Under the pieces are notes generated by a model. The model saw only the letters and a list, made by a program, of their open reading frames with translations, made no database searches and was not told where the DNA came from. The position numbers and the translations under genes are program-made. From Isoetes taiwanensis (taxonomy: Eukaryota; Streptophyta; Lycopodiopsida; Isoetales; Isoetaceae): a stretch of DNA of 64,000 bases. The stretch spans positions 1,972,494-2,036,493 of the forward strand of contig JAJEKV010000047.1 in the NCBI GenBank assembly GCA_021234155.1. The letters run 5' to 3'. This document shows positions 3,421-56,624 of the stretch, one piece after another. How positions within the stretch are numbered: position 1 is the first letter of the stretch; each line of letters starts with the position of its first letter.

Positions 3421-6000
3421 AGTGGATTATAGTCCTGCCTCTGCATTTTATTATAATTGTTTGGTCGATGAGTAAAGTTTGTCGTCCTTCGAACAAAAAC
3501 ATATTTGCTAAAGCTAAAAAAGATATCTAAAGCATTTGTAAGCTTATCTGATGTATGTTATCATGCATCCCTTTTTTGAAATTGTAGAGTTTGAGGACGA
3601 AATATATGCTAAGGTTTGAGGAGCATAGAAATTGGCTTATCACGGATATCTAAATAAGGTGGTCTTTGAAAGTACTTTGTAATTTGATGAGGGAAATTAT
3701 ATAACCTTCCGTAATCTTTGAACGTAGCACAACAAAATAGAGAATGTAGTACTAGCATAGTCTGATTTTAGTATTATGATGTTCATTTTTTGCAAGTAGT
3801 CATATATGTATTGCGTTTATTTTTAATTGGGACGATACAATTCAACATGTTGCAACATGCGGTGCTGCTAGAGTGTTGATGACCTCCAAATTGAAGTTCA
3901 CCCGCCCGTCAGAGATTTTCCTTCACTTGTCAAAAACTCTCGACTCCAGATTCGGGAATGATCACTAAAGAATTTAAGAGATGCAGCCATGCCATCGATC
4001 TGTGATTTCTTAGTGCTTCATTCCTACTTCGAATTTCGAAAAAGGGGGACAATTTTTCCTTCTTGTTGGGGAAATGCAGCTGCAAATTTTCCTGAATTCT
4101 TGTTGAATAATTTCTAGTTGCAAAGCCGCATTTCTTTCTCCCTTTCAAAGCCTAGAGTAGGTTTTGATCCAATTTCTTGTCCAGTCATCATCTTCAAGAG
4201 CAATCTCAAGAATTTTTGCACTTATCTGGTCGTTTAGTAGAAAAGACTAATGCCTCCAATCACTTCACTGTTATGTGCCATGGTGATGATGGTGGAAATG
4301 CTGATTATCCATGCTTTTCTGAAGTAGTTTAGGACGTTAATGCATACCAAGCAATATCTTACATTGCATGTCATATATGATCTATAAGTTGGTTCAAAGT
4401 GTAATAAATGGTTTGAAGTGCAAATTCACTTTATGTATTTATTTAAGCTTTTTTCCCATAATTTTTTTGCAAAAAATGTAGAGGAAGCAAGCTTTTGTTG
4501 CAAAGATGGTAAAAGATGTGGAGGAAGCAAGCTTTCGTTGTGAAGATGGTAAAAGTCATGGTTCCACAAAAAAATTCAAAGATAAGAACAAAATTTTGGA
4601 CCTTAATGCATGCCTGGCCATATTTATAATATTAACATTACTGATTCATTGCTTACATATTCATTGTTTGGTTTATTATAATTTCTTAGTCTTGTACAAG
4701 AAGATTATGATGCCCAACATTTACCAAACATGCATAGTACTCATATACTGCCAAGAAGAAATAGAGCAACTCTATAACCTTAGCTGCAGAAAGAGAAAAC
4801 AACATTGCCAAGAAGATAGAATGTCACTCTATAGAAATTAACTGCAGAAAGAAGAAAACAATAGAAGCAAAGAAGAGGGAAACAAAATCAGTTGAAAACA
4901 ACATGTCCTACTCTACACTCTTGAACGTGAAGTTGGACAACAATTCCGTTAACACAACAAAATAGCATGCAAATCACCAGGTATCGGCCACTCTTAATTT
5001 CCATGTTGTGGGTAGATGGAGTTGGGCCGTCCATTTTGCAACAACAGGTGGACCTTTGGTTGGGAAATTCTCCGGACTTGTAAGCTACAGTGTGGATTTG
5101 AAAACTTGAAAGTCTGCACTACAGTTTAGAAAGAGCAAGAAAATTTCTTGCTAAAAATAGCATTTTTTCTTGATACTTCCTCTAGGAATGGAGTGAGAAC
5201 ATGTAGATGGTAGGGGAATGAGATTATGTAGTTGATCCAGATCCAAAAGGAACTTGATGATTATGCTCAAAACAATTTTCAACCAAGAGGTGGACCCCCA
5301 GCTGCCATCGATCATGAGGACCCCTTCGGTCATGACATGACCCCTTTTAGTACGCGAAATAGGCTCACCAACTTGATTGAACTCGAAGCGCTGTATATAT
5401 CACTACATATAGTTGGCTGGTAAACGGTACATTTATTACATATGGTTTCCAATTGGGCATGTATTGTATGTTTTTAGGTGTTTTGAGGGCAAAAGAGAAT
5501 CTTTATTCCTCCTATATTCTGAGAAGGGCTTGGGACGAGCGGGACATGGCGCCTCCATGGTTCGATGCGAGTCCCTTGAATAGAAGCTGGTCCATGCTTT
5601 TTTTAGCATGGGGAAACTGGATTACTTGGCGATTCCGGCATTCTGTGAGACTATAAATCTGCTTCTTCGACCTTGCTGCCGAACCTATCAGGTGAGCATC
5701 TTGCTTGTGTTTTTTTTAGCTTGGTTTATTTGTTGTGTCTCGCAAGCTTACTGGTGGGTCTTTTTTTATTGGTGGTGTACAATAAAGCAGTCCAGGACAT
5801 AGGGTGCTTAATGGGTGCTGATTGCCCTTCAAGCTACCTTTCATTGCCCTTCCCTTGCCCTTCATTGCCCTTCAAAAAATATTAGGATGTTCTTTAGTTA
5901 TGTATAACATAATGAGCATATTAGTAATGTGAAGCCCCGATCACACATGTTATCTATGAAGGTGCTGATTTAGTGCTTGAATTTCGTTTTTTTGTACACC
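3420..6000. other. AT-rich intergenic stretch, no gene recognised
   Basis: About 2.6 kb of AT-rich sequence with only short chance frames. The one clear internal structure is the 40-bp duplication listed at 4479. I see no conserved domain, RNA gene or element terminus. Frames between 5230 and 5690 give no recognisable motifs. Confidence 0.5.
4479..4556. repeat. 40-bp tandem duplication
   Basis: Two adjacent copies of a segment containing GAGGAAGCAAGCTTT and AAGATGGTAAAAG start at about 4479 and 4519. They differ at a few bases. A 111-codon frame starts in the second copy, but it has no recognisable domain and its composition looks like chance, so I do not call a gene. Confidence 0.8.
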
Positions 6001-6022
6001 ACCAGCAAAAAAACACCCTGGT

Positions 6023-7622
6023 ATGAGGAGGGAGGCTAGAAAAGGCCGCCCTAGCAAACATGGCCAGGCAGCCTCTTCTTCAGCTAACTCTGTTGTGGAT
6101 GGAGGCAGCCATGCTGTGGACAATGACGGCATTGGCCTTTTGGATGTAAGTGTCACAATGGGTATGGCAGGAATAGATGCATCTAGAGAATTCTTTGACA
6201 TGCTTATTAGCTTCTGTGAACAAGATTGTGTTGCAAGGCTGTGACAGCAGAGAGGGGGAGTGATTTAGACCACTTGCACTACCAATGTATGTTTAGAGTT
6301 GCCTTTAAGGATCCTCGAACGGTCAATCTGGCTTTGAAAAGGAGATTTGGCTGGGGAGCTAGAAAACATGTTGGTGTAGTTCTTGTTTGCAAGGCACTCA
6401 AGAATACGAGGTTGCATTGTTTTGAGGGCATGAAAGATATGGACAAGCCCCACTTTAGGATTCACACTAAGAATATTTTTGAGAGGCAATTGGAGATGGG
6501 CAAAGATCTGTATTTGCTTTACGGTGTGGGAGATGTGAAGCATGTTTTTGTGCTTGATAACAGGAATATATTGGAAAGGGCCCTCCGCTTCGTGAATTAT
6601 CACGTAGCCTTGTTTACACAATAACCAGAATGCTTAGAACTGATAAGTTCACCCTCTCAACCAGTTGGATCCTCCCTTCAAATATAACATTCATATCTGA
6701 GCATAGACTGAAGGCTGCATGGCATTTGACTTTAAATCCCAGGATTGCATTGCCTAATGACGTCTGTTGTGTGTTGTATGGCGTCCCAACTGGGATGGAG
6801 CCTATTCAAAGGGGGCACAAGCGTTATTGGGCGAGCCTGGAATGCCTAGGGACATGGACGAGAACTTTGTTGAGGGGCAAGATGATGAGTATAGACCTGA
6901 AGGCATGGCTGACGAGCCTGGGTGTTCTTACATTCCTTTGGATACTGCAGACTATACAATGGCTATTGGATGAGTTGGTGCTGCGGGGCATGTTTATAAA
7001 TATGTTGCTTGTGTTTTGACATTCTTTATTTCTTTACAGTTAATTGTTGATGCCTGGGTTAGAGATGGAGCAAAAGCAATGGGGCTGCTGTTGGCGGGCA
7101 GCCTCGGGCTGTCATGGACAGTGGGGCTGTTCTTGATGGGCAGCATGTGCCTCATGTCAGCAGCAGCCCTGTTGGGGTTGTGGAGGTAAGGGCAGCACCA
7201 GATAATGGGGTGATTGACATTAGTGACGATGAGCCATCTCCTTCCCCTTCTTGTAGGCCTGTTGCACCCCTGGGCCATCTCCTGTTGTGATACACAATGC
7301 TATGCCATCTCCTGTTGTGTTTTCCCCAAGCAGGGAGTGAGTGCAGGTAGTCCTGGAGGTGGTCTCTTCTATTGTGAACATTAACACTCTTGCAGAATCA
7401 GTGGCAGCATCTGTTGGGGTCTTTAGAATACAATTGGGCCATTTATTTGCTGCTCTTGAGGATCCCGTGTCACACATGGAATGGGAGGAGGTGGAGGTTA
7501 GTAATGCGGAGAGGCAGTATATGCGCGCTCGTATGAACCAGGCGAGGGCACTTCTGATTATGGAGCTGCGCCAAATTGATGCCATGGCAAGGAGGCACAA
7601 TGCAGCCATGAACAATAACTAG
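6023..7622 (+). pseudogene. Replitron-like HUH endonuclease (Rep) transposon protein, broken
   Basis: A broken plus-strand coding region that I assign, with moderate trust, to a Rep-type transposon protein. It starts at 6023 with an AT-hook-like KGRPSKHG. A one-base loss near 6225 separates FFDMLISFCEQDC from TAERGSDLDHLHYQC. HLH in that segment is a His-hydrophobic-His (HUH) motif, as in single-strand nicking replication initiators. Then come VCKAL, KPHFRIHTKNI, GVGDVKH and NILERALRF. A second shift near 6625 leads to TDKFTLSTSWILPSN and LKAAWHLTLNPR. The acidic C-terminal part has VIDISDDE (7210-7233), which resembles a SUMO-interacting motif, and ends with a charged helical stretch stopping at 7622. 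The usual catalytic tyrosine segment after the HUH is not obvious. Family naming is from memory. Alternatives are another Rep-derived transposon or an unknown family. Confidence 0.5.
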
Positions 7623-8590
7623 GTGATGCTTTGCTGTTTGTGTATTTGTTTCTTGATTCTTTATGCATGGCCTGTTGCATTTGAAAAAGCAATAAAAAGC
7701 TAAAAAAAGCTTGTGGATTTCGCGTGCCAATTTGGATGGGAGGTTCGGATTTGATTCTGTGAGAAGACCTGCTGCATGTGTGATTGCTTTGCATTGCGTG
7801 ATTGGGGTTTAAAAAAAAAAGAAAAAGGAAAATAAAAAAGAAGGGGAAAATGATGTCTGATTGCATTTGCATGCTGCATGGGATTAGCCCCTGCTCTTTA
7901 AGGGTGGGCAGGCGGGCTGCTCGGAGCTGCGCATTGCGTAGGGGGTTCGGGGGTTCGACTCCCTCAGCTCGTTTCTGTATTTGCATTGCAGATCGGTTGG
8001 ATGCAGTTGTTGGTGGCACCTCCCATTGAGGCAAGCTTCATAGCTCATGCTGCCAGGAAAGTCTGTGGCTATCAGTTCTTATGATTCAAGCTTTTCATTT
8101 GCATCAGGTCATTCCAAGTGCAAAGTTAGAAGATCTATATTTGATGCTTGCCTAAATTCGTGGAAAAGCTATTATTTTTAGAAGATTTCTATTTGCGGGT
8201 CAAGCTTCTATAGGTCCATAAAAATAAACCATAATGGGTTCATAACTCTAATGGGTTCTAAAAAAAAAAAATCTAAAAAAACGTGAGCCACACAACAAGC
8301 CATGGACTCCACAATTAAATTATGAGCCGTACACGTGTCATTAAATGAAATCAAAGAGCAACGTCTCTTGTGCACATGCAAGTTGCCAACAAAAGCAACA
8401 TTTCTAAGATGCAATCATAATCCAGATTCAATAGGCAATATATACATAAATTAAACATATATAAACCTCAAGAGCACCACGTATTTCCGGAAGGAAAAAA
8501 TAGGTAAAGAAAAAAACCAGAGAAAATGAAATCGAAGAAAAAAAGGGCGGCCATGTTCTGCCCTGTTCCGGTGGGCAGGTGGGTCTGCCG
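7623..8590. other. Transposon 3' flank, A-rich tract and unannotated sequence
   Basis: Contains an A-rich tract (7810-7850) downstream of the Rep-like reading frame and a tRNA-like T-arm (separate entry). From 8000 to 8590 I see AT-rich sequence with no motif. No terminal inverted repeat matching the region before 6023 is visible by eye. Confidence 0.4.
7949..7965 (+). promoter_or_regulatory. tRNA-type B box / T-arm-like hairpin, possible SINE trace
   Basis: GGTTCGACTCC (7952-7962) matches the pol III B box. It sits in a 5-bp stem with a seven-base TTCGACT loop, as in a tRNA T-arm. The following seven bases do not pair with a plausible 5' acceptor strand, and no clear D-arm or anticodon arm precedes it. 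It is not a tRNA gene; a SINE or tRNA relic, or chance, are the options. Confidence 0.3.
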
Positions 8591-8632
8591 CAGATAGAAT
8601 CTCATGGTCGTCCATAGTAGGCTGTTTCGTCT

Positions 8633-12774: not shown

Positions 12775-13290
12775 TTAGGGTGAGTAATTATACTGGAACT
12801 CAGTAATACCCAACATAGAAGAGAGGGTAAGTGAAAACAGATAGAAGGTTCCGACAAGGATAACAACCAAAAGAACAGCAGAGACAGGGCTCTTAAGAAG
12901 GTCGAGCAAGGGTTTGACAAGACTGTAAATTCCACCAGTTGCAACAGAAAAAAAATAGAGGCCATACCGTCTCATATTCTCCCAAAACTCTTCGACCAAG
13001 GGGCCCTGTGGACCAAGGGCCAAATCCCAATCCTGCCGCAGATGCACATTCGAAGAGCTCGCAGCTTCACACGGAAATACGTGCAGCAGTAGAGCGGCGC
13101 CAATCCCTGCCCCAAATGCAAGAAGAAATTTTGCAGGAGCTTTTACCTCCAAATCTCGGCTTCTAATTTCTGAATACTTGAAACACGCGAGCTGACGATT
13201 GCTTGATCGGGACGTCGCCGGAGTTGCAGCGGCTTTGTGGAGCGGTTGCGGTAGCGCGCAGGAATAGGGCATATAATGTACCGACGCCAT
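12775..13290 (-). CDS. ycf33: Ycf33-like protein, nuclear-encoded, chloroplast-targeted
   Basis: An intact, intronless 171-residue minus-strand frame. Residues 1-48 are rich in Ser, Ala, Pro and Arg with few acids, as in a chloroplast transit peptide. Residues 53-72 are hydrophobic and end at CEAASS, which could be a membrane span or a thylakoid-transfer signal. Residues 101-162 match the small Ycf33 (DUF751) family: EFWENMRRYGLYF, then two hydrophobic segments split by KPLLDLLKSP, ending LTLSSMLG. Ycf33 is plastid-encoded in many algae; nuclear copies with an added N-terminus occur in land plants. Its role is not firmly known; it is an integral plastid membrane protein by its spans. The ATG at 13290 gives the full transit peptide. 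No broken residues are seen. It stands alone between repeats. Confidence 0.88.
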   Translation of the reverse strand: MASVHYMPYSCALPQPLHKAAATPATSRSSNRQLACFKYSEIRSRDLEVKAPAKFLLAFGAGIGAALLLHVFPCEAASSSNVHLRQDWDLALGPQGPLVEEFWENMRRYGLYFFSVATGGIYSLVKPLLDLLKSPVSAVLLVVILVGTFYLFSLTLSSMLGITEFQYNYSP

Positions 13291-13299
13291 AGCCAGTTT

Positions 13300-15320
13300 C
13301 CGGGTTTAGAATTTTGTGGCATTATCTTCTCGTCGATATCGTCCAATCTCAGCCATCCAAGCTGAATGTTCTTATCCAACGGCTTCCAGGTCTTCTCATG
13401 TGTTTGGGTGGCTTGTTATGTGGCAGGGACCATCCTTTGATGTTCTCATTGTGAAATTGCAAAATGTGTTCTAAGGTAATCGATGCAGCATTTCTTGTTG
13501 GTCCTTAAACCCAGGTCCTTGCAAGTTAGGCTAATCCAACTGTCCTTGGCCGTTGGATTCAAGGGTGGTTATATCCCAGAACTTCTCGAATATTTTTTTT
13601 TTAAGGAATATCCTATGAATTATTGACAATAATCCTTCGAATATTTTTTTGTGGAGAAGATTCCATCGTAGCCTGCTTTCTCTGTTGCTCTGTTCCGAGA
13701 AAAATCTTCCGCTCTGCCATGCCTTTGTTCATAAGCATCAAATTGGTGATAATAAAGCTTGGATTTAGAGACGAAACATGAAGACCCATCTCAGGTACAA
13801 TGTTTTGTGCCAATAATTATGGTTTGTGCAGGAAAAATCCTTTAATTTTTGTATCCTGGAGCTTAGAAGAAACAGGAATAGGACATAACCAGCAGCAAAT
13901 TGCAGTGCTGAAGATTTTTGAGCTTGATCCAGATGCGCCTTTGGATTGGAATGCTATTTTTCTTGGCCATACCTTTGCTCTGCTCTGCCATACCTTGGCT
14001 ACTAAGCATCAAATCTGACGCTGCTCTGGCATACCTTTTTGAATAGCTTTGCTTAGCAGTGAATAGCATAAAATCCGATGGTTCTTGCCTTGTTCTTGTT
14101 TCAAAACATGAAACTATGAAGGCAAAAACAAGATTCATGCCCTTTTTGAGAGATGCTTCGGAATGGAACTACAGAATCAGAAATCTGTGCAGCGATGGCA
14201 TGGCTTGAGCTTGTATCCAACCGATTTTCTCTTTTATTGTTCAATGACTCTGCAGCACAGAAAACCTTGCAGCCCAAAAAATCCTGAAGCTAGAAACAGG
14301 CTATTGTGAATTAGGAAAATCGCCTTAGATATCAGATAGCATCAAATTAGGTAGCATAGCTTGCTCGGACCTGAGTTTAAGGGAGGCCAACCCTCCCCTC
14401 TTCAGAATTTGATATGCTATGGGCATCGTTAAAACATAAAACCTAAAGAGATTAATTGCTTAAAATTTAGATATTACCAATATAATTGAGCTCCCCCATC
14501 CATTTACATTACTTATATGTTTTGTGTGGATGTGTGGGTTCAACGTGTCATGTACATGAAATTGTGGTTTCAATGTGTCTCTCATGATTCATTCAGGGTG
14601 TATGGCTTAATGTGATTATTCCATAAAATGTTGTGCCAACCATTAGAATATGCATTCATATGCATAACAAACTAGGACGTTATGCATTCTGATGTGAGAC
14701 TACAAAATTTTCATATTAACATTACAACCGTTCCCAGATTTGCATTATCATAATATTCATGTGGCACATGAAGATGTAACTATAATACCTATTGTTCGTT
14801 AAATTTTATTGATTAAGAAGCTTTTACCACTAATATTATATTGGTGTTGCTAAACTTCAACAATGATATGATAAACAAACCATCTCTATGGTTGGGCAAT
14901 GTGAGGAAGATGGAAATATTCAATTTCGATGGTTAAGTGGTGCTATATAGACAGTACTCTAGGTGGATGCAAGTTTTGTGCACATGGTATGCATAAAGAT
15001 TATTTCTAATGTAAAGCATTGCACTTCTAGTTTTACTAGGATGTCCACATAATGAATATGGATGGAATTGCAAACACTCCTTGCAACTATCCTCAACTTC
15101 TCATACCTTGCATGCACGACAATGGGAGATTTTGAAGTTAGTTATCAAATACTGTTATCAAATATTTCTCAGTAAGCCATGCTCCAGCACCAATGAATGC
15201 ACAGACTCCTGAAATTCGAAATGTAGATACATAAAACTAACAAAACCAATGTTTTCAACACCAAGTGAAGTTAGTGCAAGACACAAATGGGCTGACATAA
15301 TTTTCATATGACTAAACATC
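13300..15320. other. Upstream region of the ycf33-like gene and AT-rich intergenic DNA
   Basis: The first about 150 bases hold the 5' leader and promoter of the minus-strand gene, without a clear TATA box at the usual distance. The rest is AT-rich with no gene or element that I can support. Confidence 0.4.
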
Positions 15321-20267: not shown

Positions 20268-21656
20268 ACAAGAATCCAATGGGGAAGAAGGGATATGTCA
20301 TTCACCCGTCCCGCTCGGGACCTACCTAGCTGCGGAAGCACATCAAACATGAGCACATAATATCAAATAACATATATATCCACCTCGAAGGATGGCTCAC
20401 CATAACATAACATATGTAACAACAACATCAATAACATCAACATAAGGGAAATCCTACCCAAGGCTCAGACTCATGGGGATCAAATGACGGCTTGAGTCTC
20501 CAGAAGTCAATGAAGACAGAATTCATGACAAACGGATTGGGCTGGCATAAGAATATGGCCGTTGGGTAGTCCACTCCATCTGCCCCTCCTGTGTATACTT
20601 TGCAGATAGGATGATAAATCTTGGAGCCTGACCGTAGCCTGCCGGGTGCATAGCCAAAGGGGCTACTACTGATTTACATTTCCCCAGTTCCCAATGAGGC
20701 AGGAGGAGATCACTCCCCTCCAGAAGATGCATGTCAGTTACAGGCGGGCTAGAGAACCATTGCTTGTCTACGACTTCAACCCCATTGAAGGTGACGCATC
20801 ACCCAAGAGGTGTCAAGCCCATACCTTGCCCTCACTCAGTGGCAAACTATTAGGCCTAGCCCACAGTATTTCTCTGTAGGCTTTACACACCAGAGGGATC
20901 AACTGTAACCGGACAAGTCTTCCTTGTCAGCCAGTCTAGCTCCACCACCCACAACAGGCAGGCTCTTAGCATAGGCCGCATTAATTGGGAATTAATGAGG
21001 CTATCTAGATACATCAACTATTAAGGCTTTCAGAGTTTCTACCCCCCTTCCCAATACACAGGAGTGTGCATAGAATAGAACATCATCATCCATAGAACTA
21101 AAATATAGAATAACATCTACTCTATCTACCTAAACATACATGGCTAGGTTCCTTTATTAGGGCTTGTGATCTCAGAATCTATAAGGCCGCTAAAGCTAAA
21201 CCAACATGCTAAGCTGGCTCATTGCTAGATTGGAAGTCGTCATTGCACATCAGAATAGCCATTTACCTGATCCTTGGATTGCTCCAGCTGCTCGAAAAGC
21301 ATCTATGCTCTTGTTCGGGCTGAAGGCGACTAAATCCAGAAGGTCTATTGTGCGAAGCCGGCTTGGCAGCGTCTGGCAATGTGGAATGGCGCTAGCACTT
21401 GGCCGGAATGGCTCTTGGAAGCTGGAATGCGAAAAAGAAAAATGTTTAGGGTTTTCCTTTATGACCCTTTTAGCGTTAGGGCCAAAAGGTCATGTGGGGT
21501 TTTGCCATGTGGCAAAAATGGGTTATATGCACATGTTCAAAACTTCAAAGACATGTGCAACATAAGAAGTTGCCCCTTAGGGTGCAACCCGTTATAGTTT
21601 CCAATCATCAAGGCGACATGTAAGAGTGATATGGCAATATAATCTAGAATGTCACA
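20268..21656. repeat. Gypsy-like LTR copy 1, truncated at its left end
   Basis: Closely matches copy 2 (23701-25226) from ATTCACCCGTC onward: the same AGCTGCGGAAGC, CATAACATATGTAACAAC, GGCTGGCATAAGAA, TAGTCCACTCCATC and GGGAATTAATGAGGCTATC blocks in the same order. It ends at TGTCACA (21656), like copy 2 (CGTCACA). The first about 150 bases of the family, including the TG start, are missing. Copies 1, 2 and 3 all lie in the same direction. Confidence 0.8.
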
Positions 21657-23700: not shown

Positions 23701-25226
23701 TGTGACATCCCCTACTTCTTCTACGATGCTCCCATCATATCAGAAGGCGGAGTTCATCCCCCTGGCAGCCAAACTGGCAGGGGCCATCCACCTGACACCA
23801 ATCCCAAGCACTGGATAGAATGGATGGATCATTTGCCCCGTCTTCCCTCGGGACCGTCCTAGCTGCGGAAGCGTGAATAAACATGAGCACATGACATCAA
23901 TATATCAACAAGGTCACATCGAAGGGTAAATACATCATAACATAACATATGTAACAACATCAGTAACATCAACATAGGGGGATCCTACCCAAGGCTCAAA
24001 CTCATGAGGGATCGACTGACGGCTTGGGTCTCCAGAAGCCAATGCAGACCGAATTCATGGCAAATGGATTGGGCTGGCATAAGAACATGGTTGTTGGGTA
24101 GTCCACTCCATCCGCCCCTCCCGTGCACACTTTGCAGAGTAGGTTGAAGAGTCTTGGGACCGAACTGTAGCCTGCCGGGTGCATAGCCAAAAGGGCTATT
24201 GCTGGGTTGCATCTCCCCAGCCCCGATGAGGCAGGAGGCGAGTCACCTCCCCAGGGGCATGCATGCCCATCACATGCGGCTAGAGGGCCACTGCCCATAT
24301 TCGACTTGAACCTCATTGAAGGTGACGCATCACCCAAGAGGTGTCGAGCTCATGCCTTGCCCACACGCAGTGGCAAACCATTAAGCCTAGCCAGCTTAGA
24401 TCCCTGGTAGGCTTTACACACCAGAGGGATCAATCAGTGATAGGACAAGTCCCCCTTATTCCACCGGTCTAGCCCCGCCACTCACAACCAGGCGGGCTCT
24501 TGTACACGGGCCGCATTAATTGGGAATTAATGAGGCTATCTAGGATCATCTGCTACTGAAGTTTTCAGGGTCTCTACCCCCCTTCCCACATACACAGGAG
24601 AGCATAGAATGGAACATCATTAACATCAAAGAGCTGGAATACTGAATAAGATCTAATCTATCTTACCTAAACATACAAGGTTAGGTTCTTTCGTTACGGC
24701 TGTTGATCTTAGGATCTACAAGGCTGATAGGACTGATCTAACATACTATCCTAACTCGTTGCCGGGCTAAGAGGCATGTTTGCACAATAGAATCGCAAGT
24801 TACCTGATCCTTGGCTAGCTCCAGCTCCCCGGATGGCGTCCATGCCTTCGTTCTTGCTGAAACTGCTGCTTCTGATGAATCTAATGTGCAAAGGCGGCTC
24901 AACGATGCCTGGCAATGAGAAATGACAGCTTCCCTTAGCCGGAATGGCTCAGGGAAGCCCAAAATGCGAAAGGAGAAAGGTTTAGGGTTTCTCCTTTGGT
25001 TCCTTATATGTGAGCTTTTAGGGTTAGGTTAGAAGGGACCAAATGGGGTATTGCCACTTGGCAAGGGAGTTTTAATTGCTTATGTTTAATATACATGCGC
25101 AACATATGAGGTTGCCCTCTAGGTGCAACCCTTTACGGCTCTCAAGTACTTGTCATGATGACATGTACGTGTGACGTGGCAGTATAATATACGTATTCGG
25201 ATCGTATGTTATACTGGAACGTCACA
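23701..25226. repeat. Gypsy-like LTR copy 2, full length, likely solo LTR
   Basis: 1526 bases starting TGTGACATCCCC and ending GGAACGTCACA, so it has TG..CA ends inside a TGTGAC/GTCACA inverted pair. The bases just outside are GGAGC and GAAGC, a four-of-five match to a target-site duplication. No internal retroelement domain sits next to either end; the left flank is LINE sequence. This fits a solo LTR formed by recombination between two LTRs. The strand of the parent element is taken from copy 3 (minus). Confidence 0.8.
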
Positions 25227-25567: not shown

Positions 25568-26254
25568 CTAGTTTTGAGATTGCCATCTGCAAAGAAAAGA
25601 AGTTAGATCAAATATAAATCCAGTTTTGGCACCAATGCTGCCTAATCCCGCAAGCCATCCCTCTAATTCATCCATGTACAAACTAAACAAGTTAGGGGAG
25701 CAAGGGTAGCCATGTTTGACCCCAATATAGCTCTTAATTTTATGTACATCCGTGAAAGGAAAAGAGAGAATGAAGATCTGTTTGTAAAGGCATGCCACAT
25801 CTTATTTAAGCTCCAAGGTATTTGTAACAACTCCGAACGAGCTTCTAAGTCAACTCTATCCACCCGATCAAAAGCTTTAGTAAGGTCAATGAAAGCAAAA
25901 TATCTTGTAGTTCCATGCCCTTTTGCTCCTTTATCAATCACTCTTATTGTAACCAAATGGTCTATCGTGGAATGCCCATGTCTGAAACCAGCCTGGCTAT
26001 AAGACCGCATCTCATTTAAATCTGTCCATTTTGATATTTTCTATCACAGAGGCAAATACCTTCATAAAGACATTACTTACCAAAATTGTTTTATAGTTGC
26101 GTATATCATCCTTATCTCCACCTTCATAGATCGGAATGACTTTGTTTATACACCAATTGAAAGGGAAAATGCCATCTTGAAGCACTGCATTACATATAGC
26201 CACCAGTTTCTCACAAGAGATCCCTCCAAATTTCAATAACTTGATTGGGAGCAT
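25568..26254 (-). pseudogene. LINE reverse transcriptase fragment
   Basis: Minus-strand frames from right to left give an RT core. 26254-26012 has GISCEKLVAICN, then FNWCINKVIPIYEGGDK and NYKTILVSNVFMKVF (the W-x-x-A-x-I-x-P-I-x-K-G and R-P-I-S-L blocks). 26010-25663 has QAGFRHGHSTIDHLV and YFAFIDLTKAFDRVD (the A-F-D block). 25798-25568 has IGVKHGYPCSPNLFSLYMDEL (the G-V-x-Q-G-C-P-x-S-P block) and stops before an intact Y-x-DD. Three frames are needed, so it is broken. This RT lineage differs from the LINE at 26477-29690, whose blocks read otherwise. Confidence 0.8.
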
Positions 26255-45369: not shown

Positions 45370-46356
45370 ATGTCAAGCAGATTTGGTGCCAGCCTATTGA
45401 GCAGTGTAGAAATCTTCAAAGGAGGAGCAGGCTTTCAGGTATGGAAAGATGCCATTAAACATATACTTGAAGTAGAAGATTTATGGGATCTGGTTGATCC
45501 AGAAAATGTGGACTTGAGCAGTCCAATTAACATCATTCAAAGGTCTGTGTCAGAAGGTTCAGTGAATGCAAATGCTACTAATGCAAATGCAGGTGAGACA
45601 AGTGCAAGAGAGACTGTGGTTAGCCAAGGAGGAATGCAAAGGAGATCACAGTATGCACGAAAGGAAGCATAAGAAATCATTTCGTGCAAGGTGAGTTCTA
45701 CCATTAGACTAAAATTGAGAGATAAAAGTCCTAGACAAATGTGGCAGTTTCTTCTTAAAAATTATGAAGAAAAGACCTCTTCTCAAATAGAACTTTTGGA
45801 AAATGAACTCAGAAGCTTAAAGCTTAACTTTGATGGAGATGTGTCAGAATACTTCAATCACTTTGATAATATGATTGCTGACCTGTCAACAGCAGGGATT
45901 AACATATCAGACAGAAGTCAGGTCTTACAGATTTCTAGGGCCATCATTGATAATGAACAACTTGGATTATTCATAAGGAACATGTGCAAAAATCGAGAAG
46001 AGGCTGAAAAAGTGCTAAGAACAGAATTTGAGCAAAAGAAGTTGAAAGAGGGAGATGATTCTGCTGAGATCTTAATTGCTGGTGAAAAGAAACAAATCAC
46101 ATGCTATTATTGTCATGAAATTGGTCACTTTAAAAGTCAATGCCCCAAACTGAAAAAGAAATTTAGCTGCTTCAATTGTGGAGGGAAAGGACATATGGCA
46201 GCCAAGTGCTCAACTCCCAAAGACTACAATCAAGGAAAGGGGAAAGAGAAAAACTTTAAGGGAGGAAGAGGATCTGGAAGGAAGGATGGGGGGTCCACAT
46301 CACAAAAACCAATGATGATGACAGCAAAGAAGAAAGCCAAGATGAGAATGAGGTAA
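45370..46356 (+). pseudogene. Copia gag with two zinc knuckles, interrupted by one stop
   Basis: Capsid/nucleocapsid polyprotein. ATG at 45370; one in-frame TAA at 45670-45672, then the same frame continues to 46356. The capsid part has FQVWKDAIKHILE and the UBN2-like region with MWQFLLKNYEEKTSSQ and LRSLKLNFDGDVSEYFNHFD. Two CCHC knuckles follow: CYYCHEIGHFKSQC and CFNCGGKGHMAAKC, which bind RNA in such elements. The C-terminus is basic and Gly-rich. The next domain lies one frame over, with a shift near 46310 inside a Met/Asp-rich stretch. I see no clear programmed slippery site, so I treat it as an indel. Confidence 0.9.
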
Positions 46357-46361
46357 AGAAA

Positions 46362-47568
46362 TTGATGATTGCAAGCAAAATTAATTCTGGAACTAATAAA
46401 AGGTCTGATGTTGTTGTAGTTGATAGTGGAGCTGAGAGATCAGTAGTACAAACTACTGATCTACTCCAAGACCTTGATGCATCTCGAAGAAGTAAAATAC
46501 AAGTTGGCAATGGAGAAGTACAACTTGCTGAAGGCACTGGATTGTTGCAGCTGATTGATCTAGAGGGAAACATTGTAGACATAGAAAATGTGTTATGTGT
46601 TCCCACTTTGATCAAGAATTTGATTTCAGTTAGTCAATTAGTTGACTTGGGATACAAAATCAATTTTGATTCCAAAGGATGTAGCATCTTTCTTGATAAT
46701 ATATTGAAGTTTAATGCAAAAAGATTTGGAAACCTTTTTCAAATGGATGGCATCATTAAGAACAGCATAAATTGCATAACCACTTCAGACACAGAATTAT
46801 GGCACAATAGATTGGCTCACACTCATTGCAACAACATTAATTTTCTGACCAAAAAGGGATGGATATCCTGCAGTGATATTAAGGAAAAAGAACTTATATG
46901 TGAAGGATGCTTGCTTGGGAAGATAAATAGGCTTCCCTTTAAGAAATCAGCAAATAGAGCCAAACATGTGCTGGACCTAGTGCACAGTGATCTCTGTGGC
47001 CCATTAAATATCAGAAGCAGATCAAACAAAAGGTACTTTATTACCTTTATTGATGATTATTCTCGTAAGTGCAAGGTCTATTGTCTTGAAAGAAAGTCAC
47101 AAGCTCTGCAAGCTTTCAAACAATATGTAGCAGAGGTAGAAAGAGAAACTGGCAACAAATTGAAATGTATAAGAACAGATCGTGGAGGAGAATACTTGTC
47201 TAGGAAATTCAGGCTTTCTTGTATTGCTAATGGAATAAAGAGACAGCTAACTTGCAGGTTCAGTCCTCAGCAAAATGGAGTAGCAGAAAGGAAAAATAGG
47301 ACACTTATGGATGCTGTGAGATCCATGATCAAACATAGTGGAGCTTCCTGCAGCTGCTCTTAAAGGTAATATACCTCAAATCCTTTGGCATAATGGGAAT
47401 GATAAAGTTAACTATGATATGTTTAAAGCGTATGAATGTTTAACTTATGTTCACGTACCTCATGAATTAAGAAAAAAATTAGACAATAAGGCTGAAGTTG
47501 GTTACTTAGTGGGATATGATGATGAAGCAAAAGGGTACGTAATTTATAACCCTTTACTAAGCAGATAA
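46362..47568 (+). pseudogene. Copia protease and integrase
   Basis: 46362-47363 is one open frame. The aspartic protease has VVDSGAERSV near its start (D-S-G-A). The GAG-pre-integrase zinc region has LWHNRLAHTHCNN and ICEGCLLGK. The integrase core has HSDLCGPL and FIDDYSRK (first Asp region), IRTDRGGEY (second Asp) and PQQNGVAERKNRTLMD (catalytic Glu). After MIKHSG the frame shifts, and about 25 residues usual in the family appear to be missing. The other frame resumes with AAALKGNIPQILW, then KAYECLTYVHVP and VGYLVGYDDEAKGY, ending at 47568. In an intact element protease matures gag-pol and integrase inserts the cDNA. Confidence 0.92.
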
Positions 47569-47580
47569 TGATCAGCCAGG

Positions 47581-48486
47581 ATGTTATATTCAATGAGGAA
47601 GCATCAGATAAAGACAGCACCTAAAGGAAATGACTCAAAAGAAGCAAAAACAGTTGTTAGAAATGAAGATGCAAAGCAAATAGAGAAGCAGACCAATGAA
47701 CTCAATAGTATGGACTCTGATGATGATGAAAATCAAACAGAAGGTGACAATGTTGATGAGACAACAGTGAAGTGCAGATTAAATGAGGAAGAACAGGTTC
47801 AACAATCAGAGCTACATGAAAACAACTTTGTCAAACAAAGGAAAAATCAAGCGGAAAAATTACTTGAGGATACACACATTGATTTAGACCAATATGGCAG
47901 GACAGAAACTGGCAGAAGCAGAAGAATACAGGGATCTTATGTTGACCATGATCACATTCTCAGCATCACTGAAGATTCTAGTGTTCCGAGATCATATGAG
48001 GAAGTATTAACATCTCCAGAAAAGGAAAAATGGTTAGATGCAATGAATGAGGAGATGGAATCCTTCAAGGACACAAATACATATGATCTGGTGGAATATA
48101 CAGATGATAAGCACTTAATAGGATGCAAATGGCTCTTCAAATTAAAGACAAATGCAGATGGCAGTCAGAAGCACAAAGCTAGATTAGTAGCTCAGGGATT
48201 TACCCAGAAAAAGGGGAAAGATTATGATGAAACCTATTCCTCAATTGTAAAATTAACAAGCCTCAAAATGTTGTTGAGTATAGCAAATGCACTTGATTTT
48301 GAGGTGCACCATATGGATGTAAAGACTGCCTTTTTGAATGCAAAGTTGGAGGAGAAAATTTATCTTGAACAAGAAAAACAAAATTTGGAAGCTTAATAGA
48401 GCTTGGATTTGAACAAGAAGATAACAAAATTTGGAAGCTTAATAGAGCTGCTGTATGGATTAAAGCAGTCCCCCAAGGAATGGTAT
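47581..48486 (+). pseudogene. Copia reverse transcriptase, N-terminal part only
   Basis: 47581-48396 is open for 271 codons: an acidic linker, then PRSYEEVLTSPEKEKWLDAM, IGCKWLFKLKTNADG, KARLVAQGFTQKKGKDY and HMDVKTAFLNAKLEEKIYLE, all standard Copia RT blocks. It stops where a short duplication occurs: ACAAAATTTGGAAGCTTAAT is present twice, about 50 bases apart (near 48378 and 48424). After the second copy the LLYGLKQSPKEWYN block can be read at 48440-48486. Homology then ends. The catalytic DD pair and RNase H are absent. Confidence 0.9.
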
Positions 48487-55007: not shown

Positions 55008-56624
55008 CTACTCCTTATCTACGATGCCCACATCGTGATTCGGCGGGAGGAGCATTCCCCGGCAGCTACTAATCGGGGGCCATCCACTGACTCCACTCCA
55101 GCCGGGATGAGCCGACAAGGGAAGAATGGATGTGTCATTCACCCGCCTTCCATCGGGTCGACCTATCCGCTGAAGCGTGAATAAACAAACGTGAGCACAA
55201 CTAACAAATAAACAAATACAAGTACCTCGAGAGGTAAATACAATACAACATCACGTAGATAGCAATACCATAGAAATAACATCATCACATAACATAAATA
55301 ACAAAGGGGAGATCCTACCCGGGGCTCGAGACTCTAGGGGGATGACCGACGGCTAGGGCCTCGAGGAGTTCATTGCGCATGTAATTCATGGCAATGGATT
55401 TGGCTGGCATAGAACATGGCTTAGGGTAGTCCACTCCATCCGCCCCTCCCGGTGCACACTGCGCAGTAGGTGAAAAGTGTTGGGACTTGGCCGTAGCTCC
55501 CCAGGGTGAATAGCCGGAGGGGCTACTACTCTTGGGTTGCATCTCCCCAGCCCGATGAGGCAGGGGAAGAGAGTTGCCTCCCCTCCGGAGGCATCCATGC
55601 TCATCCAGTGAGCGGCTAGAGGGCCCTTGCCCTTATTCGACTTGAACTCTTTGGAAGGTCATATTCACCACCCCACAGTGTCGAGCTCATGCCTTGCCCA
55701 CACGCGGTGACAAGCCATTAAGCCTAGCCCACAGAGACCCCGATAGGCCTTACTACCCGGAGGGGGGTCGGTCAGGTGATGAGACAAGTTCCTCCTTATC
55801 AACCGGCCTAGCCCCTTCACCCATAGCCGGTGGGCTCCGTGCGCGGGCAAGATATAATTGGGAACTAGTGGTGCTACCTAGGATCATCCGCTACACGACT
55901 TTTAGGTCTCTACCCCCTTCCCAATACATGGAGATCACAGAGTGAAATACATACAACATCCGTAACTGAAATAGAAATAGAAATATCATCTAATCTATCT
56001 ACCTAAACAATGAGTTAGGTTCCTTAGTTAGGGCTTATGATCTCGGGATCTATAAGGCCTCTAGAGTTGATCTAACATACTAAACCAGCCTATTGCCTTG
56101 CCCAAAGGCGGCTTTGCACAACGAGAACAACTAGATACCGCTCCTTGACACGCTCGACCCTCGGGCGTCCATGCTCCTGATCTTCTTGAAGATGGTCGCT
56201 GTCGATAATGTTTGTGCAAATCCGCTTCCGAGCTTCAAAGAATGCGGATTGAAGTCCGGACTTGGCGAAATGGCTCAAGAGAACCACGAACTTCGAGAGA
56301 GGAAAGGAGCTCTAGGAAAAACCTAAAATGCAAAGAGAAGAAAGGTTTAGGGTTTAAGAGGAAAGCCCTTTTATAGAAACCCTTAGGGTTAGGTTAGATA
56401 TTGGCCAAATGGGATTTAGCCATTTGGCAATGGGGTCCATGGGGTTATTAATTGTGTATGTTTATTTAACATGCACAACATTCGATGTTGCCCCTAGGTG
56501 CAACTCTTGCTCCCCTAGGTGCAACCTTATATCGTCTCAAGTACATGTCATCCGTGACGTATGCGGGTGGTGACGGGCAAGATAATATACGTATTCGGGG
56601 CGTATATTATGTTGGAACGTCACA
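54997..56624 (-). repeat. Gypsy-like LTR copy 3, 3' LTR of a minus-strand element
   Basis: 1628 bases, TGTGGACGCCCC to GGAACGTCACA. It shares with copy 2 the block order ATTCACCCG, AGCGTGAATAAAC, GATCCTACCC, TAGTCCACTCCATC, TGCATCTCCCCAGC, ending TAATATACGTATTCGG. The bases to its right read, on the minus strand, AAGGTGGGGAGAA directly before TGTGACG. That is a polypurine tract, so this is a 3' LTR and the internal region lies at higher coordinates. Confidence 0.8.

What the first reader, a model, noticed from the sequence alone, without database searches (positions are those of the whole stretch)
6023..7622. HUH-endonuclease (Replitron-like) transposon relic in a plant genome
HLH inside LDHLHYQ is a His-hydrophobic-His motif preceded by an AT-hook-like N-terminus and followed by a conserved-looking LPSN and NPR tail and an acidic SIM-like VIDISDDE. 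HUH transposons of the Replitron type are a recently described group; plant copies with a SUMO-interacting-like C-terminus are little described. Only two or three single-base shifts break it, so intact copies may exist elsewhere in the genome. The tyrosine block expected after the HUH seems shortened, which could be a copy-specific deletion.
Basis: partly seen in the sequence, partly recalled or inferred. Interest (0 to 1): 0.7.

Follow-up and report, generated by a model that had tools for sequence, protein, structure and literature searches.

The report
Broken Replitron transposase relic in plant
This is the decayed remains of a Replitron, a recently described kind of jumping gene, with its DNA-cutting enzyme broken by frameshifts and probably lacking the key tyrosine; an ordinary fossil of a known family.

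Summary
The frame at 6220-6621 (+) matches Pfam PF21859, Replitron_HUH, at E = 3.5e-5 (24.6 bits; gathering cut-off 28.5). Joined by X to the N-terminal frame it scores 27.0 bits. With a neutral spacer of five X between FEGM and KDMDKPHF it scores 35.4 bits (E = 1.6e-8). Spacers of 2, 3, 4, 6, 7 and 8 X give 29.0-31.1, and five X at six other places give 20.4-28.3. So about five codons are missing, at profile positions 96-100, just before a conserved Lys-Asp. That is where I recall the Rep catalytic tyrosine (YxxK). Masking puts HLH on conserved profile columns. Five frame changes break the reading frame, more than the "two or three" claimed. Triplet periodicity supports the acidic, SIM-like and tail pieces as former coding DNA. 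No other copy was seen in the window, and no relative in the viral, phage and prokaryote collections searched. Ends and target-site duplications stay unresolved. [quoted passage not shown] The host is unknown; a seed plant would extend that range.

The parts
6023..6229 (+). N-terminal coding piece (frame 2): ATG, basic KGRP stretch, start of the HUH domain (EFFDMLISFCEQD); frame closes at the stop 6242-6244
   Evidence: translation; the joined reading extends the Pfam match back to profile position 13; triplet periodicity p = 0.0065 against base shuffles
6229..6606 (+). HUH endonuclease core (frame 1) with HLH at 6271-6279
   Evidence: Pfam PF21859 Replitron_HUH, E = 3.5e-5 for the frame 6220-6621; masking shows that both His, the Gln, and the later Lys-Asp and His fall on columns that add to the score
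6432..6433 (+). Site of a loss of about five codons (15 bases, in frame), profile positions 96-100, immediately before the conserved Lys-Asp; expected seat of the catalytic tyrosine (recalled motif)
   Evidence: spacer test: maximum at five X (35.4 bits against 27.0 with none and 29.0-31.1 for 2, 3, 4, 6, 7, 8)
6615..6785 (+). Piece after the HUH domain (frame 0), with LPSN and NPR
   Evidence: open frame only; no credible Pfam match and no triplet periodicity (p = 0.24); assigned by position
6791..6970 (+). Acidic piece (frame 2), closed by the stop 6971-6973; possibly once followed by a short intron
   Evidence: triplet periodicity p = 0.0035; value reached in 9 of 345 background windows
7063..7287 (+). 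Piece with the SIM-like VIDISDDE (frame 1), closed by the stop 7288-7290
   Evidence: triplet periodicity p = 0.0005; value reached in 3 of 276 background windows
7341..7622 (+). C-terminal tail (frame 0) with stop codon at 7620-7622; AATAAA at 7691-7696 may be a polyadenylation signal
   Evidence: periodicity reached by 0 of 2000 shuffles and by 3 of 222 background windows; sequence
5752..6022 (.). Small MITE-like element with inverted ends (5756-5786 and 5988-6018) between TGGT copies, lying right against the ATG; taken as separate from the Replitron
   Evidence: 31-nt arms, 87% complementary; flanking TGGT read

Best explanation
The stretch 6023-7622 is a dead copy of the transposase gene of a Replitron. 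In life the protein would have used the HUH histidines to hold a metal ion and a tyrosine to nick one strand at the element's end, forming a 5'-phosphotyrosine link, and so helped the element to move through a single-stranded step. This copy cannot: its frame is broken in several places, and about five codons before the conserved Lys-Asp, where the catalytic tyrosine is expected, are gone. Shown: family match, position of HLH on conserved columns, the gap, the frame changes. Inferred: that the tyrosine was in the gap, and the chemistry (from the superfamily). Not shown: element ends, target-site duplications, mobility in this species.
For: Pfam PF21859 Replitron_HUH E = 3.5e-5 with the bare frame and E = 1.6e-8, above the curated cut-off, when joined with the N-terminal piece and a five-X spacer; the gain depends on spacer length and place, and the one shuffle tried had no match. 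Masking costs in bits: first His 2.5, Leu 0.3, second His 5.8, Gln 4.5, post-gap Lys 4.1, Asp 4.7, later His 5.8. The Tyr downstream at profile position 127 costs only 1.6 bits, so it is a poor candidate for the catalytic column. Triplet periodicity in five of six pieces.
Against: The bare frame is below Pfam's gathering score (24.6 against 28.5), and so is the joined reading without spacer (27.0); the pass depends on a spacer. The part after the gap alone gives no match, and each half alone is weak (E = 0.068 and 0.065). The profile itself could not be seen, so a tyrosine in columns 96-100 is recalled from Rep motif III, not read. No relative was found to compare, the fold prediction failed (mean pLDDT 39.8), and no element ends were established.
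Confidence: 0.92

Rival explanations
1. The relic is a decayed host gene domesticated from a Replitron long ago (an exapted HUH protein, possibly kept for DNA binding without the tyrosine), later pseudogenised.
For: The loss of about five codons keeps the frame, as selection on a non-cutting protein might; the basic N-terminus and SIM-like acidic stretch would suit a chromatin protein (inference); no second copy seen in 64 kb with three of the six pieces and by self-comparison.
Against: Five frame changes argue against selection now; a random short deletion keeps the frame one time in three (inference). Copy number outside the window could not be counted.
Confidence: 0.05
2. A Helitron or CRESS-DNA-virus Rep relic rather than a Replitron.
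For: Both encode HUH Rep domains (Helitrons and reps are named as HUH proteins in PMC13231165, passage seen; CRESS viruses recalled).
Against: The only Pfam family reported for the HUH frame at E up to 1 is Replitron_HUH; no helicase match in the six frames given, nor in 20 other frames of the window; no phage record and no PHROG family matches the HUH frame.
Confidence: 0.02
3. Chance: a non-coding stretch in which HLH and loosely fitting residues arose by accident.
For: HUH motifs are common by chance, 109 in six frames.
Against: E = 3.5e-5 and 1.6e-8; one shuffle without match; triplet periodicity of this strength is rare elsewhere in the window.
Confidence: 0.01

Closest known systems
Replitrons (Craig 2023, PNAS e2301424120, not seen; Pfam PF21859)
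   Same: HUH endonuclease domain matched over profile positions 13-127 of 128; no helicase match in the pieces; the 1.6 kb frame fits the 0.9-4 kb elements described in PMC10741241 (passage).
   Different: Broken frame; about five columns missing before the conserved Lys-Asp; ends and target-site duplications not found. The original paper was not held, so the N- and C-terminal regions could not be compared.
Helitrons
   Same: Eukaryotic transposons with an HUH enzyme (PMC13231165, passage).
   Different: No helicase and no Helitron profile match in the pieces.

Membership tests
Replitron | Replitron-type HUH endonuclease domain | tested here: met
   PF21859: 24.6 bits for the bare frame (below cut-off 28.5); 27.0 joined, 35.4 for the X-joined reading with five-X spacer
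Replitron | HUH histidines | tested here: met
   masking the first and second His of HLH costs 2.5 and 5.8 bits
Replitron | catalytic tyrosine | tested here: inconclusive
   about five profile columns (96-100) are missing from this copy; that the tyrosine lies there is recalled from Rep motif III; the profile could not be read and no relative was found
Replitron | endonuclease gene without a helicase (recalled) | tested here: met
   no helicase match in the six frames given to (E up to 1); 20 of the 43 window frames of 120 aa or more listed were also scanned (E up to 0.1), the rest not, apart from the two
Replitron | short direct terminal repeats (5-11 bp) and no terminal inverted repeats (PMC10741241) | tested here: inconclusive
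   one 11-bp exact direct repeat, ATTCTGTGAGA at 5640 and 7754, against a shuffle mean of 0.175 such matches; not decisive with one copy; the inverted ends at 5756/6018 are taken as a separate small element
Replitron | target-site duplication of 2-8 bp (PMC10741241) | tested here: inconclusive
   ends not fixed, so not assignable
Replitron | host among green algae, liverworts, mosses, lycophytes, ferns | not testable with these tools
   no genome held for the window
Helitron | Rep domain together with a helicase (recalled) | tested here: not met
   no such Pfam match in the six frames

The most novel reading that the evidence does not exclude
The window comes from a hornwort or seed plant, where Replitrons are said to be absent (PMC10741241), so this is the fossil of a Replitron in a lineage thought to lack them; or its lineage carries a distinctive long C-terminal extension with an acidic SUMO-interacting motif that steers the enzyme to SUMO-marked chromatin.
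Probability: 0.1. Interest if true: 0.5.

Novelty: new member of a known kind. Interest (0 to 1): 0.22.

Why it matters
It shows that a Replitron match can be recovered from a frameshifted fossil whose longest frame, and even whose joined reading without spacer, stays below the curated cut-off, and it marks one more place where this recently described transposon group has lived. If the host were a seed plant or hornwort it would change the reported host range. Otherwise it is an ordinary transposon fossil.

Tried and rejected
Relatives: scan of IMG/VR (33 stretches matched a peptide pattern, 0 confirmed by tblastn) and of GTDB genome contigs (41 stretches, 0 confirmed), tblastn of 50,697 phage records (no match at E up to 1), the PDB by sequence (none at E up to 10). 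Four degenerate DNA patterns in IMG/VR: one hit, L001, whose ORF shares only the pattern and looks to me like a 2-oxoglutarate oxygenase (recalled). The spacing in the pattern was one codon shorter than in the window's frame; one search repeated it at the window's spacing, also with no hit. These collections hold viruses and prokaryotes, so an empty result says nothing about plants.

Other copies in the window: tblastn of three of the six pieces (N, HUH, and 6615-6785) gave, outside their own places, only weak rows (best E = 0.16), and the self-comparison of the window listed no pair within 5600-7800.

Fold: single-sequence AlphaFold2 of 6229-6606 gave mean pLDDT 39.8; no fold search was made with so poor a model.

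NCBIfam gave nothing for five pieces; PHROGs gave only weak matches to families of unknown function (E = 0.35 in the acidic piece, 0.028 and 0.094 in the tail); not pursued. For the piece 6615-6785 the only Pfam row was a periplasmic sensor domain at E = 0.15, and for the N-terminal frame YjbE at E = 0.14; both taken as chance.

Terminal repeats: exact direct repeats between 5000-5755 and 7623-8600 were 8 of length 9, 2 of length 10, 1 of length 11 and 0 of length 12, against means of 3.72, 0.97, 0.175 and 0.08 in 200 shuffles of the upstream part (overlapping words counted separately); suggestive at most.

Papers: four searches. A search on ycf33 as a lineage marker listed 2 papers on chloroplast genomes of other plants (listing only), which did not help to place the host.

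Full report
What is in the sequence. The + strand from 6023 to 7622 holds a chain of open frames: 6023-6229 (frame 2), 6229-6606 (frame 1), 6615-6785 (frame 0), 6791-6970 (frame 2), 7063-7287 (frame 1) and 7341-7622 (frame 0). There are five frame changes; the one near 6970-7063 might be a short intron, because TTTCTTTACAG at 7029-7039 resembles an acceptor, although no clean donor is seen (inference). The other changes were not tested for splice sites beyond reading the sequence. The exact piece limits are my choice, within overlapping or neighbouring open frames.

Is it more than chance? The H-hydrophobic-H motif is not: 109 occurrences in six frames. The profile match is. Of six frames given to Pfam, the one with HLH matched a single family at E up to 1, PF21859 Replitron_HUH, E = 3.5e-5, 24.6 bits against a gathering score of 28.5, over profile positions 31-127 of 128; the N-terminal frame had one chance-level row and the other four none. 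Joined through X with the N-terminal piece, the match extends back to position 13 at 27.0 bits, still below the gathering score.

The gap. Between FEGM and KDMDKPHF I placed neutral X spacers. Bits were 27.0 (none), 30.7 (2), 30.2 (3), 31.0 (4), 35.4 (5), 31.1 (6), 30.0 (7) and 29.0 (8); a spacer of one X was printed but not scored. So any spacer here helps, and five helps most. Five X at six other places gave 25.4, 28.3, 22.0, 24.8, 24.3 and 20.4. One shuffle of the core had no match. Alone, the piece before the gap aligns at positions 32-94 (E = 0.068), LHCFEGM plus five X plus the following piece at 92-127 (E = 0.065), and the following piece without these gives no match. The missing columns are therefore 96-100. 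Rep proteins carry the nicking tyrosine in a YxxK motif (recalled), and the conserved Lys follows the gap directly, so I infer that the tyrosine went with it. The next tyrosines are poor substitutes: masking the one at position 127 costs 1.6 bits, and the one three residues on, outside the matched stretch, costs nothing; masking the Gly and Met just before the gap costs 2.3 and 4.8 bits.

The HLH. Masking one residue at a time from the 35.4-bit reading gave 32.9 (first His), 35.1 (Leu), 29.6 (second His), 35.4 (Tyr), 30.9 (Gln), 32.1 (Glu of ERG), 31.3 (Lys after the gap), 30.7 (Asp), 29.6 (His of KPHF) and 35.3 (His of LHCF). The HLH therefore lies on conserved columns, the second His more strongly than the first. 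The profile itself was not seen, so that these are its HUH columns follows from the scores and the family's name.

The rest of the frame. Period-three signal exceeds base shuffles in five of six pieces (p = 0.0065 for N; 0 of 2000 shuffles for HUH; 0.0035 acidic; 0.0005 SIM-like; 0 of 2000 for the tail) but not in 6615-6785 (p = 0.24), nor in three control stretches (p = 0.12, 0.43, 0.16). Against equal-length windows elsewhere in the 64 kb, which include other present or former genes, the observed value was reached in 10 of 301 (N), 4 of 163 (HUH), 132 of 364 (6615-6785), 9 of 345 (acidic), 3 of 276 (SIM-like) and 3 of 222 (tail). The pieces were chosen because they are open, which favours them somewhat. 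So the acidic, SIM-like and tail pieces are probably former coding DNA, while the piece with LPSN and NPR rests on position alone. That all belong to one gene is inferred from order and strand. An AT-hook was not recognised by Pfam, and short motifs of this kind occur by chance.

Surroundings. No second copy was seen in the window (tblastn with three of the six pieces). A 263-base element with inverted ends sits between TGGT copies right against the ATG. The window also holds a copia-type retrotransposon, a reverse transcriptase fragment (RVT_1) and an intact-looking DUF751 (Ycf33) frame whose product starts with what looks like a transit peptide. No rRNA, tRNA or other Rfam family reaches its threshold. 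That fits a plant nuclear genome (inference); the species is not known.

Mechanism and place among known things. Replitron enzymes belong to the HUH superfamily, whose members use a tyrosine to cut single-stranded DNA and stay linked to it by a 5' phosphotyrosine (PMC13231165, passage seen). [quoted passage not shown] The original description (PMC10288648) is not held. Three papers in the library hold the word; in PMC13253262 it is only in the reference list. This copy fits the family by its enzyme; the structural hallmarks could not be tested on one decayed copy. It is a new member of a known kind, dead, in a host I cannot name.

Noticed in passing
window 5752-6022: A 263-base element with 31-nt inverted ends (GGGT..., 87% complementary) between TGGT copies, inserted directly upstream of the Replitron ATG; superfamily not determined.
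   Followed up: partly
window 12778-13305 (-): Apparently intact single-exon frame with a DUF751 (Ycf33) domain, E = 5.2e-20, behind a possible chloroplast transit peptide: a nuclear copy of what is a plastid gene in many algae (recalled).
   Followed up: partly
window 7878-7966 (+): Weak tRNA-like match (Rfam tmRNA model, 20.1 bits, E = 2.2e-5, below the gathering score of 47) with GGGTTCGACTCCC; perhaps a tRNA-derived fragment or SINE head.
   Followed up: no
window 20305-21460, 23837-24997, 55265-56083: Three related repeats of 0.8-1.2 kb, 73-78% identical, in the same orientation; nature unknown.
   Followed up: no
window 45673-48393 (+): Copia-type retrotransposon with gag, zinc knuckle, integrase and reverse transcriptase matches in three successive open frames.
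   Followed up: no
window 25666-26040 (-): Fragment of a RVT_1 reverse transcriptase, E = 1e-8, probably LINE-like.
   Followed up: no
window 5640-5650 and 7754-7764: Exact 11-bp direct repeat ATTCTGTGAGA flanking the relic, a possible pair of Replitron terminal repeats, but not significant on one copy.
   Followed up: partly
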